Assembly: GCF_900119495.1 (NCBI RefSeq) | Contig: NZ_LT632435.1 | Coordinates: 884,736-948,735, forward strand | Direction: 5' to 3' | Source of the DNA: Arcanobacterium urinimassiliense | Lineage (GTDB): Bacteria > Actinomycetota > Actinomycetes > Actinomycetales > Actinomycetaceae | DNA length: 64,000 nt | Part shown: positions 38,371 to 48,157 of the stretch, piece by piece | Layout: every line of letters begins with the position of its first letter | Position numbering within the stretch: the stretch's first letter is position 1 | Translations under genes and position numbers: made by a program | Notes under the pieces: generated by a model | Told to the model about the DNA's origin: nothing | The model's database searches: none | The model's input: the letters and a program-made list of their open reading frames with translations, nothing else

Positions 38371-38763
38371 ATGGCTGTAGATTTGCAAACTGCGTATACT
38401 CGCTTGGTAAATGCACTAGAAGAATTTCATAGTTCGGTATTGGAATTTTCCGATGCGGAAGCACCGGCGGTATTGCGCGCCACCGATCATTTAGTGGATG
38501 CCTACACCGTTTATGACGATGCGATTTTCACCCAATATGGGGTAGAGATGCCTTTCGATACCTACGCCGACGATGATGACGACGATGACGATTACGAAGG
38601 CAATGAAGCTTTTGATTTTTATGCTCATGATGACGATGATGATGACGACGATGAGTATGATTTCTCCGACGCGGATGATGAAGATGATGACGACGATTAC
38701 GGCGAAGATGATGACTACGATGACTATGATTACGCCGACGACGATGATGAGGATGACGATTAA
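38371..38763 (+). CDS. acidic protein with poly-Asp tail
   Basis: A 130-residue protein. Residues 1-65 are a helical head (LQTAYTRLVNALEEFHSSVL). The remaining half is almost only Asp, Glu and Tyr, encoded by long GAY/GAR runs. ATG 38371 is preferred because MAVDLQTAYTRLVNALEEFH is a natural beginning, although GGAG lies unusually close; an in-frame TTG at 38335 is the alternative. Similar acidic actinobacterial proteins are sometimes named primosomal protein without evidence. It sits 52 bases after the nuclease gene. The role is unknown; DNA mimicry or metal binding are guesses. Confidence 0.75.
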   Translation: MAVDLQTAYTRLVNALEEFHSSVLEFSDAEAPAVLRATDHLVDAYTVYDDAIFTQYGVEMPFDTYADDDDDDDDYEGNEAFDFYAHDDDDDDDDEYDFSDADDEDDDDDYGEDDDYDDYDYADDDDEDDD

Positions 38764-43733: not shown

Positions 43734-43781
43734 AGCTCTACCGTACTACGCCTTTTGGGGAACTTTCCTCCAGCCCGTAGA

Positions 43782-44876
43782 ATGTGGAATGTGCAGGATT
43801 ATCCACAAGATCAAAAAGCGCGGCGGCGCGGGCCCTTTCGAGCCGGTGAGCGCGTGCAGCTGACTGACAGTAAAAATCGTCACTATACCATTACGCTGAC
43901 TGCCGATGGGTATTTTCAATCTCGGCGGGGAAGTTTTTATCATCGGGATTTGATTGGGAAAGAGGAAGGTACGCTGCTCACCACGGCAACGGGGCACAAA
44001 CTGCTGGCATTCCGCCCACTTATTTCGGATTATGTACTCTCGATGCCGCGTGGTGCCACCGTGATATATCCGAAAGATGCTGGGCAAATTGTGCACTATG
44101 CGGATATTTTTCCAGGTGCGCAAGTAGTAGAAGCCGGTTTAGGCTCGGGAGCTCTAGCTATCTCGCTTTTGGCCGCCGTGGGTAAAGAAGGGCATTTAAC
44201 TTCGGTAGAACGCCGCCCCGAATATGCCGATATAGCGCGCGCCAATGTGGAATCGTGGTACGGCACCGCGAATTTGCCCTGGGAAATAAAAATAGGAGAC
44301 TTGGCAGAAGTATTGGCAGATTTTCCTCCCGCCCAGATAGATAGAGTAGTGCTCGATATGCTCGCTCCGTGGGAAAATATTGCCGCGGCGGCGCGGGTAC
44401 TAGTGCCGGGAGGCGTATTTTTAGCCTACGTAACCACTATTCCGCAGCTTTCGCGCCTCACCGAAGAACTGCGCATATCTGGGCAATTTACCGATCCTAC
44501 GTCATTTGAAATACTGCTCCGCCCCTGGCACGTAGAAGGACTTTCCATTCGCCCCGTACATTCGATGGTGGCACATACGGGATTTTTATTAACGGCGCGG
44601 CGCTTAGCTGGCGAATCCGCCGGGCAACTTTTTACTCCAGAGCAATTATCGGAAGCTGTTCTTCCATTTCGCGGAGAAGATAGTGATTGGGAAGCAGAAT
44701 TAGATCGAGATTTTAAGAACGAGAAGCGGATTCGGAAAATTCGGCGAGCGGTGGCGCGGCGAGCTGACCAAGAGAAAAGCGGTCTTTCTCACCCCGGTGA
44801 AAATATGGAGAAACTAGAAGCACAACTGCGGCGGGAGCAAAAGGAGAAAATATGCCCATCGAAGCAGCCCGAGTAA
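43782..44876 (+). CDS. trmI: tRNA (adenine-58-N1)-methyltransferase TrmI
   Basis: A SAM-dependent methyltransferase of about 364 residues that makes m1A58 in tRNA. RRRGPFRAGERVQLTDSKNR begins the conserved part; VVEAGLGSGALAISLLAAVG is the SAM motif, and VVLDMLAPWEN follows. A charged C-terminal tail of about 80 residues extends past the usual 280-residue form. ATG 43782 is preferred; TTG 43755 and GTG 43791 are in frame. The 3' end overlaps dop by 25 bases, so trmI and dop are likely co-transcribed. Confidence 0.9.
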   Translation: MWNVQDYPQDQKARRRGPFRAGERVQLTDSKNRHYTITLTADGYFQSRRGSFYHRDLIGKEEGTLLTTATGHKLLAFRPLISDYVLSMPRGATVIYPKDAGQIVHYADIFPGAQVVEAGLGSGALAISLLAAVGKEGHLTSVERRPEYADIARANVESWYGTANLPWEIKIGDLAEVLADFPPAQIDRVVLDMLAPWENIAAAARVLVPGGVFLAYVTTIPQLSRLTEELRISGQFTDPTSFEILLRPWHVEGLSIRPVHSMVAHTGFLLTARRLAGESAGQLFTPEQLSEAVLPFRGEDSDWEAELDRDFKNEKRIRKIRRAVARRADQEKSGLSHPGENMEKLEAQLRREQKEKICPSKQPE

Positions 44877-46456
44877 TTGGTTTAGAGACGGAGTTTGGAA
44901 TTCTAGATGCGGAGCATAAATCCGCAAATCCGATAGTGCTCAGCACCGAAGTAGTTAATTCGCTAGCTGAATTCGGGGCGGCAGCGGATAAAAGCGCAAG
45001 TAACTGGGATTATAGTGGTGAAGATCCACTCCAAGATGCGCGCGGTTTTCATCTAGAGCGCGCGGCTGCCCACTCCTCACAGCTCACAGATTCCGGTGCC
45101 AAGTATGGCACTTCAGTGGCGGCAGAAATGGCATTTTTGCCCCGCCCGCGCCCAGAAGAGCTGCGTCTTTCCCGAGTAGCGAATACGGTATTGGCAAACG
45201 GGGCTCGATTTTATGTAGACCATGCACATCCGGAATATTCCGCTCCGGAAGCTGCCAGCCCGCGCGCGGCCGTGCTCTGGGATCGGGCCGGAGAGGTAAT
45301 TGCACAGCGTGCTATGCAAAAATTGGCGGAGCAGGGTAAGCAATATGTGCTCTATAAAAATAATGTTGACGGAAAAGGCGCTTCCTATGGTGCGCATGAA
45401 AATTACTTGCTCTCACGCCGAGTAGATTTCGCTACTATCGTGCGTTATCTGACTCCTTTTTTAGCTACGCGGCAAATTTTCTGCGGAAGTGGCCGGCTGG
45501 GGATTGGGCAAAAATCAGAGCAGGCTAATGCTTTTCAGATAGCACAGCGTGCTGACTATATTGAAAATGATGTGGGGCTAGAAACCACTTTTAATCGTCC
45601 GCTTATAAATAGTCGTGATGAACCACATGCACCGGCTAATTATCGCCGTCTGCATTTAATAAACGGCGATGCCAATCAATTCGATATTTCTACATTTTTA
45701 AAAGTTGGCACTACTTCGCTCGTACTCGGCTTATTAGAAAGTGGAAATATCCCGCTTTCCTTAGAAGCGGCGACTTTAACTGATCCAGTAGCTGCTACTT
45801 GGCAAATATCGCATGATCTTTCGCTGCGGGCGCCTGTAGAAATGCAAGATGGGACTGCGAAAACGGCCGTGGATATTCAAGAGATGTATCTGGAAGCCGT
45901 GCGAGATGAAATAGAAAAGAATGGCAATAAAGATAGCGAAACTTTAGAAATAATCGACCTCTGGCAGCAGACTTTAGACGCTCTACGCACCGATATTTTT
46001 TCTTTAGCTACGCAGGTAGAATGGATAGCGAAATACCAGCTACTGCAGTCGTGGCAGCATAAATATGGGCAGAGTGATCTGGGAGAAAAATTACGGGCGC
46101 TGGATTTACAGTGGCATGATTTACGGCCAGAAAAATCCGTGGTGCAAAAGCTGCGCCAGGCCGGGCGGGTAAAACAGCTTTTTAGTGACGCAGAAGTGCA
46201 GTGGGCAGCTGCTAATCCTCCATCCCAGACGCGCGCCTACGTGCGGGGAAGTTTAATTAAGAATTTTCCGGCGGGTGTGGCAGCGGCTGGCTGGGGAGGA
46301 ATAGTTTTAGATATTCCGGAAAATCCGCAGCTAGTGCGAATTCCGCTTTTAGATCCACAGCCAAAAAATTTAGCGGAATATCGCAGTTGGATAGAAAATA
46401 GTTCGTCAATAGAGGAGTTTTTCCAGCTATATAGCAAGCAAGGGTACGGAGCATAA
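44852..46456 (+). CDS. dop: Dop, deamidase/depupylase
   Basis: A 534-residue glutamine-synthetase-like enzyme that removes Pup from substrates. RVIGLETEFGIL (8-18) is the nucleotide-binding start, and ARFYVDHAHPEYSAPE contains the key Asp at 123. The stretch between about residues 45 and 95 is the Dop-specific loop. An AAGGAG site precedes ATG 44852, inside the trmI end. Because Pup here already ends in Glu, only the depupylase activity should be needed. Mpa/ARC, which usually lies between trmI and dop, is missing. Confidence 0.95.
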   Translation: MPIEAARVIGLETEFGILDAEHKSANPIVLSTEVVNSLAEFGAAADKSASNWDYSGEDPLQDARGFHLERAAAHSSQLTDSGAKYGTSVAAEMAFLPRPRPEELRLSRVANTVLANGARFYVDHAHPEYSAPEAASPRAAVLWDRAGEVIAQRAMQKLAEQGKQYVLYKNNVDGKGASYGAHENYLLSRRVDFATIVRYLTPFLATRQIFCGSGRLGIGQKSEQANAFQIAQRADYIENDVGLETTFNRPLINSRDEPHAPANYRRLHLINGDANQFDISTFLKVGTTSLVLGLLESGNIPLSLEAATLTDPVAATWQISHDLSLRAPVEMQDGTAKTAVDIQEMYLEAVRDEIEKNGNKDSETLEIIDLWQQTLDALRTDIFSLATQVEWIAKYQLLQSWQHKYGQSDLGEKLRALDLQWHDLRPEKSVVQKLRQAGRVKQLFSDAEVQWAAANPPSQTRAYVRGSLIKNFPAGVAAAGWGGIVLDIPENPQLVRIPLLDPQPKNLAEYRSWIENSSSIEEFFQLYSKQGYGA

Positions 46457-46508
46457 TTGTGTGCTCTCTGGAGAAAAAGTAGAGTTAAATGATGGCAGTA
46501 GTCAGGGA

Positions 46509-46547
46509 GAGAAACAGAGAAACAGAGAAACAGAGAAACAGAGAAAA
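46509..46547 (+). repeat. tandem octamer GAGAAACA before pup
   Basis: Four perfect head-to-tail copies of GAGAAACA (46509-46540) and a fifth partial GAGAAAA lie directly before the pup start codon at 46550. The units are purine-rich and fall in the ribosome-binding zone. The better Shine-Dalgarno-like CAGGGAG (46504-46510) is pushed about 40 bases away from the ATG. Repeat number could change by slippage and alter translation. Confidence 0.92.
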
Positions 46548-46549
46548 TA

Positions 46550-46771
46550 ATGGCAAATGATGCAGTAAATAAAGTAGATAATTTCGCTAGCGGGTTAAAT
46601 GCGGGTAATGGCAGCAATGCGGCGAATGCGCAAGATGCGGCTAATAACCCAGTGGCGGCAGAGGAAAAAGTCGATGAAAATCTAGATATGCTGCTGAGCG
46701 ATATTGGAGAAATACTGGAAGAAGATGCAGCAGCTTTCGTACAAGGTTTTGTACAAAAAGGTGGGGAATAA
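46550..46771 (+). CDS. pup: Pup, prokaryotic ubiquitin-like protein
   Basis: A 73-residue protein modifier, slightly longer than the usual 64. The N-terminus is Asn/Ala-rich and disordered. The C-terminal part NLDMLLSDIGEILEEDAA and FVQGFVQKGGE is conserved. It ends Gly-Gly-Glu rather than Gly-Gly-Gln, so it is ready for ligation by PafA without deamidation. It lies between dop and pafA, and its stop directly precedes the pafA GTG. Its leader carries the octamer repeat. Confidence 0.96.
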   Translation: MANDAVNKVDNFASGLNAGNGSNAANAQDAANNPVAAEEKVDENLDMLLSDIGEILEEDAAAFVQGFVQKGGE

Positions 46772-48157
46772 GTGGTGCAGCCGGAAAAAAGAATTTTCGG
46801 TATTGAAAATGAATATGGCATAACTTGCCCGCGGATCGACGGGCGCGGTTCTGCACTGTTGCCGGAAGCAGCTGCTCAGTTACTCTTCGCTCCTTTGGTG
46901 GAAAAAATGCACACGGCCAATGTGTATCTACCGAATGGAAGTCGGCTTTACTTAGATGTAGGTACCCATCCAGAGTATGCCAGTGCCGAATGCGATGACC
47001 CCGCTGATTTACTGGCAAATGACCGCGCCGGGGATGCGATATTACGAGATTTAGCAGCGCAAGCTAATAAAGAATTACGTGCAAAGCAGGCGGGGCAGAT
47101 TCATCTTTTTAAGAATAACGTCGATAGTGCCGGGCATTCTTTTGGCTGCCATGAAAATTACCTAGTGCGCCGGCGGCGTGACTATCGGGCGCGGGTAGAA
47201 TCATTGATTCCTTTTTTCGTATCTCGGCAGCTACTAGTGGGAGCGGGTTATATTATGCCCGCTAGCGAAGATGAGGCTGCACATTTTGAAATTTCCCAGC
47301 GGGCGCGTTATATATCAGATTCGATATCCGCTGCTACTACTAATTCTCGTCCACTTATAAATACCCGCGATGAACCGCACGGAGATCCGGAGCGGTTTCG
47401 TAGACTCCACGTGATAGTAGGAGATTCGAATATCGGTGATGCCACCACTGCCTTGAAAATATGCATGACGGAAGCAGTGCTGGGAATACTGGAAACGGGA
47501 GAAAAACTACCGGAATATACTTTAGAAGATCCCTTAGCCGCCTTACGGGCAATTTCGCAGGATTGGCAAGCAGTGGTGCCTTTGGCAAACGGAAAAAGTA
47601 TTTCTGCACTAGATCTACAAATCGTTTTTTATCAGTGGGTAGAATCCCACTATGAAAAGTGGGGATGGGAGGTACAATCGCCCCTTCGTCAATATGCTTT
47701 CCAACTGTGGAAGCGAGCTTTAACTGCTTTGGAAGCAGATAATTTATCGGCAATTGCCACCGAAATAGATTGGGTAGCAAAATGGCGTTTTTTCCGCCGC
47801 TATCAGGAAAAATTTTCTTTAGACTACGGAGATATTCGTTTAGCCCGTCTGGAATTAGCTTGGCATGATATTACGGAAAAAGGTTTGCGCGATTCCTTAG
47901 AAGAGAGCGGGATTTTGCAGGTATTGCTCACTCCTGCCGAAATTAGTGCAGCTCAATTACTACCTCCGCGTACTACGCGGGCAAAATTGCGTGGAGATTT
48001 TATTCAGGCGGCGCAGGCGGCGCGTGCTACTTATTTAGCAGATTGGTCTACGCTGCAGTTGGTGGACGGCGCTGGCGTCCATAGCATAGAGTTAGATGAT
48101 CCTTTTGTAGCTACTGATAAACGGGTAGAGCTACTTTTGGCTCGGTTGGAGAAATAA
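46772..48157 (+). CDS. pafA: PafA, Pup-protein ligase
   Basis: A 461-residue glutamine-synthetase-like ligase that joins Pup's C-terminal Glu to lysines of target proteins with ATP. IFGIENEYGITC (8-19) and LPNGSRLYLDVGTHPEYASA (53-72), with the catalytic Asp at 62, are diagnostic. The GTG start is adjacent to the pup stop; the second codon is also GTG, so the start could be one codon later. The stop overlaps the next gene (TAATG). With Dop and Pup it forms a complete tagging and untagging set. Confidence 0.96.
   Translation: MVQPEKRIFGIENEYGITCPRIDGRGSALLPEAAAQLLFAPLVEKMHTANVYLPNGSRLYLDVGTHPEYASAECDDPADLLANDRAGDAILRDLAAQANKELRAKQAGQIHLFKNNVDSAGHSFGCHENYLVRRRRDYRARVESLIPFFVSRQLLVGAGYIMPASEDEAAHFEISQRARYISDSISAATTNSRPLINTRDEPHGDPERFRRLHVIVGDSNIGDATTALKICMTEAVLGILETGEKLPEYTLEDPLAALRAISQDWQAVVPLANGKSISALDLQIVFYQWVESHYEKWGWEVQSPLRQYAFQLWKRALTALEADNLSAIATEIDWVAKWRFFRRYQEKFSLDYGDIRLARLELAWHDITEKGLRDSLEESGILQVLLTPAEISAAQLLPPRTTRAKLRGDFIQAAQAARATYLADWSTLQLVDGAGVHSIELDDPFVATDKRVELLLARLEK

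What the first reader, a model, noticed from the sequence alone, without database searches (positions are those of the whole stretch)
46509..46547. Perfect 8-bp tandem repeat in the translation leader of pup
Four exact copies of GAGAAACA and a partial fifth occupy the ribosome-binding region of pup, while the better Shine-Dalgarno-like site lies about 40 bases away. Eight-base units next to a start codon are a classical substrate for slipped-strand copy change. Varying the number could set the level of Pup and therefore of all pupylation. I know of no description of repeat-controlled pup expression.
Basis: partly seen in the sequence, partly recalled or inferred. Interest (0 to 1): 0.68.

Follow-up and report, generated by a model that had tools for sequence, protein, structure and literature searches.

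The report
8-base repeat before pup gene
A perfect 8-base repeat really does fill the stretch just before the start of the pup gene in this actinobacterium and looks like a copying-slippage product, but rough modelling predicts that gaining or losing one unit changes little, so it is an untested, mildly unusual regulatory candidate.

Summary
A perfect period-8 tract (AGAGAAAC, 4.9 copies) spans 46508-46546, ending 3 nt before the pup ATG (46550), beyond chance. It occurs once in its genome and in none of 199 other sampled family genomes. Slippage origin is likely, but the last 17 nt before the ATG are the same for any copy number from 1 up, and a rough Shine-Dalgarno (SD) plus spacing model scores 1 to 8 units identically; only loss of every unit brings AGGGAG to SD distance, though that leader folds more. 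Best reading: a species-specific slippage expansion separated a possible former SD from the start, leaving a weak, unstructured purine leader in which one unit matters little. Context: this genome has Dop, Pup and PafA, but no 20S proteasome and no Arc unfoldase; arc is missing between trmI and dop. Precedents: variable dop-promoter repeats in M. tuberculosis Erdman (PMC12817950) and start-codon-adjacent repeats elsewhere (PMC4679880). Same-unit arrays precede start codons in two phage lineages, without clear enrichment over a control unit.

The parts
46508..46546 (+). perfect period-8 tandem array (AGAGAAAC x4.9; = GAGAAACA x4 + GAGAAA) in the pup leader
   Evidence: unique in its genome
46505..46509 (+). 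GGGAG, SD-like site 40 nt from the ATG; would be at SD distance if the four units were absent
   Evidence: duplex model
46550..46771 (+). pup, 73 aa, ends GGE
   Evidence: PF05639, E 1.6e-12
44852..46456 (+). dop (Pup deamidase/depupylase)
   Evidence: PF03136; best solved-structure matches are Dop, 4b0r and 5lrt
46772..48157 (+). pafA (Pup ligase), GTG start directly after the pup stop
   Evidence: PF03136; best solved-structure match is PafA, 4b0t
43755..44876 (+). trmI-like tRNA methyltransferase; overlaps dop by 25 nt; arc lies between these two genes in four sister loci but is absent here
46489..46560 (+). short upstream frame (ATG 46489 or 46492) reading through the array, its stop codon ending at pup nt 11; joins the pup frame with 1 unit more or 2 fewer
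   Evidence: weak SD; no evidence of translation

Best explanation
The tract is a species-specific replication-slippage expansion of a GAGAAA(CA) seed in the purine-rich pup leader. It lengthened the distance between a possible former SD (AGGGAG) and the start codon by 32 nt. pup is now translated from a weak, unstructured purine-rich leader in which the last units (GAGAAACAGAGAAA) serve as a poor SD; further units are close to neutral for initiation. Gain or loss of single units is expected to be tolerated with little effect. Shown: sequence, uniqueness, non-chance, unchanged start-proximal bases. Inferred: the ancestral state, slippage as the cause, and the weak effect.
For: Perfect array far beyond surrogates, absent from 199 other sampled family genomes and from the other 44 readable pup leaders. 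Model with this genome's own 16S tail: the same best score (-5.09) for 1-8 units, -7.71 for 0 units with AGGGAG at spacing 6. Bases -20 to -1 are 94-97% unpaired from 2 units up. Own leader ranks 39th of 45 pup leaders, and 6 of the 7 other genus members with pup score better. The sampled genome holds four other arrays of at least 3 copies, all between long ORFs, and has NucS, a mismatch-repair type reported not to correct indels (PMC8228993, abstract and passages). Sister leader L016 has a two-copy GAAACGA repeat before its ATG. In a phage family, GAAAC units before an ATG differ in number (2-4) and period between relatives.
Against: The ancestral leader is inferred, not seen: no near relative with fewer units was available. 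Folding speaks against a simple gain on collapse: with 0 units the modelled region folds more strongly (-12.3 against -5.7 kcal/mol at 4 units) and bases -20 to -1 are only 54% unpaired, which may cancel the better SD. The own SD score is not extreme locally: 4 of 9 neighbouring genes scored weaker (ORF-finder starts). The model uses E. coli-type spacing constants from memory and scores two relatives with a plain AAAGG (L007, L014) as weak. It ignores standby binding, ribosomal protein S1, mRNA decay and transcription. A perfect, undecayed array could mean recent origin or selection.
Confidence: 0.45

Rival explanations
1. One reading: slipped-strand copy change is a rheostat or switch that sets Pup level by changing the translation leader.
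For: Perfect tract in the ribosome-binding region. Such tracts tune genes elsewhere: uspA2 AGAT repeats in a 5' UTR (as summarised in PMC4679880) and hmw1A 7-bp promoter repeats (PMC8262952); for the dop promoter repeats of M. tuberculosis Erdman variation was seen and an effect proposed (PMC12817950).
Against: SD+spacing score identical for 1-8 units and start-codon accessibility nearly flat. pup is not a surface gene. No copy-number data. The tract is short (under 5 units) beside the uspA2 (6-23) and hmw1A examples.
Confidence: 0.15
2. Pure neutral slippage: the array has no effect on expression at all, and GGGAG was never the SD.
For: Two arrays of the sample lie between convergent genes, where no leader role is possible (L115:13132, L105:7537). 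The SD model is flat for 1-8 units, and at 0 units a better SD is offset by stronger folding.
Against: The array occupies the initiation region of a conserved gene, and the own leader scores weaker than 6 of the 7 other genus members with pup, so some effect of the insertion is plausible.
Confidence: 0.25
3. Frame switch: a short upstream frame from ATG 46489/46492 runs through the array. With 4 units it ends just inside pup, with 3 units it ends in a TAATG overlap with the pup start, with 5 units it fuses in frame to give an N-terminally extended Pup.
For: Frames computed for 0-8 units; no stop arises within the array in any of them.
Against: The upstream starts have very weak SD scores (-2.39 and -2.7). 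Relatives were not tested for such a frame. Any non-triplet array behind an upstream ATG gives this pattern. The consensus scan found no promoter-like site in 46300-46800, but expected only 0.8 by chance, so it says little.
Confidence: 0.06

Closest known systems
dop promoter tandem repeat of M. tuberculosis Erdman (PMC12817950; passages and the dop-promoter section read)
   Same: tandem repeat of variable copy number next to a gene of the Pup pathway in an actinobacterium
   Different: 57-bp unit, promoter of dop not leader of pup, variation shown in reads; here 8-bp unit, leader of pup, variation unknown
Moraxella catarrhalis uspA2 AGAT repeats (seen only as summarised in PMC4679880, passages)
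   Same: short repeat in the 5' untranslated region, between promoter and start codon
   Different: 6-23 copies, surface protein, expression effect measured; here under 5 copies, not a surface protein, nothing measured
TAACTGA repeats upstream of start codons in marine Beggiatoaceae (PMC4679880, passages)
   Same: repeats at the ribosome-binding position, close to the ATG, with little SD character
   Different: 169 sets in one genome with one unit; here a single locus
Haemophilus hmw1A 7-bp repeats (PMC8262952, passages)
   Same: unit of similar length upstream of a gene
   Different: lies between two promoters and lowers transcript level as it grows; 13-24 units in the constructs in the passages

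Membership tests
phase-variable (contingency) repeat locus | perfect short tandem tract beyond chance | tested here: met
   31-nt self-match against 11-12 in 10 surrogates
phase-variable (contingency) repeat locus | copy number differs between strains or within a culture | not testable with these tools
   one genome per species held; no reads
phase-variable (contingency) repeat locus | copy change alters expression | tested here: inconclusive
   SD model flat for 1-8 units, change only at 0 units, where folding also rises; no expression data
phase-variable (contingency) repeat locus | tract kept at the same locus in relatives (a supporting, not strictly defining, feature) | tested here: not met
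   0 of the other 44 readable pup leaders; 0 of 199 other sampled family genomes hold three units with up to 2 mismatches
Pup-proteasome system | pup, dop and pafA present with matching domains | tested here: met
Pup-proteasome system | 20S core (PF00227) | tested here: not met
   0 of 10 genus genomes, own included
Pup-proteasome system | Arc/Mpa ATPase (TIGR03689) | tested here: not met
   own genome has only a 160.5-bit match, cut-off 504.75; a match of 156-163 bits is found in each of the 10 genus genomes. arc absent between trmI and dop

The most novel reading that the evidence does not exclude
GAAAC-type tandem units laid against a start codon are a recurrent, SD-poor leader element that arises and changes length by slippage in unrelated genomes (this pup gene and at least two phage lineages). 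In an Arc-less, proteasome-less pupylation system it lets the level or the N-terminus of Pup drift by whole units.
Probability: 0.08. Interest if true: 0.72.

Novelty: new member of a known kind. Interest (0 to 1): 0.36.

Why it matters
If copy number did tune Pup, one slippage-prone leader would change a proteome-wide modification. As it stands the case shows how a leader array can grow between an SD-like site and a start codon while the start-proximal bases stay fixed, which predicts near-neutral single-unit changes. The side result, pup/dop/pafA kept without the 20S core and without Arc, is a sharper question: what is Pup for when its known unfoldase is gone? A review states that proteasome-less genomes nevertheless keep the ATPase (PMC3511204, passages).

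Tried and rejected
Dispersed repeat element: rejected; two tandem units (up to 2 mismatches) occur only at this array in the genome, and three units in no other of 200 sampled family genomes. N-terminal coding extension with the present 4 units: rejected, no in-frame ATG/GTG/TTG between the upstream stop and the ATG. Promoter or terminator in the gap: none found by consensus scan of 46300-46800, with 0.8 and 0.3 expected in shuffles, so uninformative. General GAAAC leader code in this genome: not supported; 17 of 309 leaders against 10.6 expected, none with two GAAAC (ORFs of 150 aa or more, so pup itself is not among them). Enrichment of the array in viral contigs: not supported; 51 stretches hold the two-unit 16-mer against 60 for the unit read backwards, arrays of 20 nt or more 6 against 4, leader-like places 7 against 7. 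Pup pathway decay: not clear for the enzymes; own PafA is 54-56% identical to four sisters, which are 57-78% identical to each other; own Dop 54-57% against 51-78%. The residue I recall as the catalytic aspartate is kept in both. Relatives of the 49-aa ORF behind the L143 array: only itself found. PHROGs gave no family for the phage gene of L183.

Rows dropped: one search listed 52 pup matches; 30 came as loci, 20 were fetched, G053 and G054 were not fetched. Of the 50 read, 5 (L081, L088, L089, L090, L095) gave no pup by my C-terminal pattern and were left out of the 45-leader counts. Pup starts were chosen by script.

Full report
WHAT IS THERE. The window lies in contig C2 of a 1.68-Mb genome. 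Its best named match in the one genome-contig scan is a record titled Actinomycetaceae bacterium (48% identity in PafA); no tool names the species. Between dop (44852-46456) and pup (46550-46771) is a 93-nt gap. Its last part is a perfect period-8 tract, 46508-46546, that is GAGAAACA four times plus GAGAAA, then ATA and the ATG. pafA starts at 46772, directly after the pup stop. Pfam supports all three genes.

NOT CHANCE, AND LOCAL. In 464 kb of this genome the tract has the third-longest self-match among perfect arrays of period 1-20; 10 surrogates reach 11-12 nt against 31. Two tandem units (up to 2 mismatches) occur nowhere else in the genome, and three units in none of 199 other genomes of a 200-genome family sample. 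In the 150 nt before 45 pup genes (own and 44 others) the next-best self-match is 8 nt.

THE GENOME MAKES SUCH ARRAYS ELSEWHERE. The same sample holds four more arrays of at least 3 copies and 16 nt self-match: an 11-bp unit x8.8, a 14-bp unit x3.5, a 7-bp unit x4 and AGAA x5. All four lie between long ORFs (a 63-aa ORF crosses the 11-bp array); the 11-bp and 14-bp arrays lie between convergent ORFs, and the AGAA run ends 9 nt before the ATG of a 249-aa ORF. In a 320-kb sample of sister G009 one array met the same standard; from 5 against 1 I draw no conclusion. NucS is present in 10 of 10 genus genomes; a review describes NucS repair as unable to correct indels (PMC8228993, abstract and passages). 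MutS was not searched for.

WHAT COPY NUMBER COULD DO. The 16S tail in this genome reads ...GGATCACCTCCTTTCT. I scored leaders for duplex energy with that tail plus a spacing penalty (constants recalled). With 1 to 8 units the best score is -5.09, always from the start-proximal GAGAAACAGAGA. With 0 units it is -7.71, from AGGGAG at spacing 6. Bases -20 to -1 are 94-97% unpaired from 2 units up, 77% with 1 and 54% with 0; the folding energy goes from -12.3 (0 units) to -5.7 (3 and 4) and -3.4 (5 to 8); start-codon accessibility is 0.55-0.65 throughout. So a step from 4 to 3 or 5 is predicted to do little. Complete loss improves the SD but folds the leader, so its net effect is unclear. The own leader ranks 39th of 45 pup leaders; without the units it would rank 30th. 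Among nine neighbouring genes four score weaker than pup and five stronger (range -11.51 to 2.0, ORF-finder starts), so a weak SD is not exceptional in this region. The model is rough and misses standby, decay and transcription effects.

FRAME READING. From ATG 46489 or 46492 a short frame crosses the array. With 4 units its stop ends at pup nt 11; with 3 (or 0, 6) its stop overlaps the pup start as TAATG; with 5 (or 2, 8) it fuses in frame to Pup. Its own SD scores are weak, so I give this little weight.

RELATIVES. By eye, the leaders of the seven other genus members with pup are purine-rich with AAGG- or GGAG-like sites; L016 has GGGAAACGAGAAACG before its ATG. Strain-level comparison was impossible: one genome per species is held.

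SAME UNIT ELSEWHERE. A scan of viral contigs for three units found one stretch, L143, where (GAGAAACA)4GAG lies 14 nt before the ATG of a 49-aa ORF. Two units gave 51 stretches, among them a phage family in which 3.5 units end 1 nt before an ATG. The 17 loci found with that gene have leaders of 26-35 nt with 2-4 GAAAC; successive GAAA lie 7 or 8 nt apart, or 14-15 nt in five loci. Unit number and period thus change between relatives while the gene stays. But the control unit read backwards gave 60 stretches, 4 arrays of at least 20 nt against 6, and 7 leader-like places against 7. Among arrays of at least 20 nt alone, 3 of 6 are leader-like by the script (L143, with its short ORF, would be a fourth) against 1 of 4 in the control; the three are close relatives (91-100% identical in the compared flanks). 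So there is no clear sign of enrichment.

PATHWAY CONTEXT. No 20S subunit in 10 of 10 genus genomes. Arc over the family cut-off is in 8 of 10, not in this genome nor in G004. In four of four sister loci examined a 537-613-aa ORF lies between trmI and dop, at the place of the Arc match; here trmI overlaps dop by 25 nt. Of 59 genomes (own and 58 relatives) six lack Arc over the cut-off: own, G004, G034, G038 and G055, and G019, whose 468.6-bit match covers most of the model. One search found no pup in G004, G034, G038 and G055, but that search, made with the divergent own Pup, also found none in five genomes that have Arc, so absence in G038 and G055 is not firm; G004 and G034 lack it in the PF05639 search too. 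In the 200-genome family sample 13 fall below the Arc cut-off: G019 and G096 with strong matches (E about 1e-140) and eleven with weak ones only. Of the eleven, own, G066, G070, G120, G139 and G219 have pup, G135 has a marginal match (E 6.6e-4), and G004, G034, G106 and G164 have none. Of those six only own and G120 are at least 95% complete, and one search scored only 7 candidates per genome. So Pup without Arc is rare here, not unique. PafA and Dop keep the aspartate that I recall as catalytic. Of 21 columns conserved in at least 80% of 44 other Pups, own Pup differs at four: two aspartates (40 and 43 of 44; here S and G), an N (38 of 44; here D) and the last Q (40 of 44; here E).

LITERATURE. 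Listings from searches for repeats with pup or pupylation (10 of 192 listed), repeats with SD and phase variation and SD-spacer repeats showed no repeat-controlled pup. The nearest is a 57-bp dop-promoter repeat of variable copy number in M. tuberculosis Erdman (PMC12817950, passages and the dop-promoter section). Repeats at start codons are described for Beggiatoaceae, and that paper summarises uspA1 and uspA2 of Moraxella (PMC4679880, passages). On Arc: a review says that proteasome-less genomes nevertheless keep the ATPase (PMC3511204, passages); two searches (8 of 16 listed, and 73, 6 of 32 listed) showed no title on Pup without Arc.

VERDICT.

Noticed in passing
window 43755-48157: dop, pup and pafA without Arc or 20S core: arc is missing from between trmI and dop, where four sister loci have it; a rare pupylation set without its unfoldase.
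   Followed up: partly
window 46598-46650: The N-terminal part of pup has an imperfect 9-nt period (23 of 44 matches at offset 9), coding an Ala/Asn/Gly-rich stretch; slippage may have shaped this too.
   Followed up: partly
G000:C2:1315915-1317112: A third 16S rRNA match broken into pieces (model 9-873, 875-902 and 945-1216), beside two full copies; a truncated rRNA gene or an assembly oddity.
   Followed up: no
L110:5509-5528: AGAA x5 ending 9 nt before the ATG of a 249-aa ORF in the same genome, with GAGG between: another purine repeat in a leader.
   Followed up: partly
L254-L270, leaders upstream of the match: A phage family in which one gene, in 17 of 17 loci found, starts behind 2-4 GAAAC units, mostly at 7-8 nt period, with no obvious SD by eye; units change number and period between relatives.
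   Followed up: partly
L115:13132-13228: An 11-bp unit repeated 8.8 times perfectly between two convergent ORFs, the longest perfect array of the sample.
   Followed up: no
window 38569-38759: Imperfect GAC/GAT repeats (several periods), probably an acidic coding stretch.
   Followed up: no
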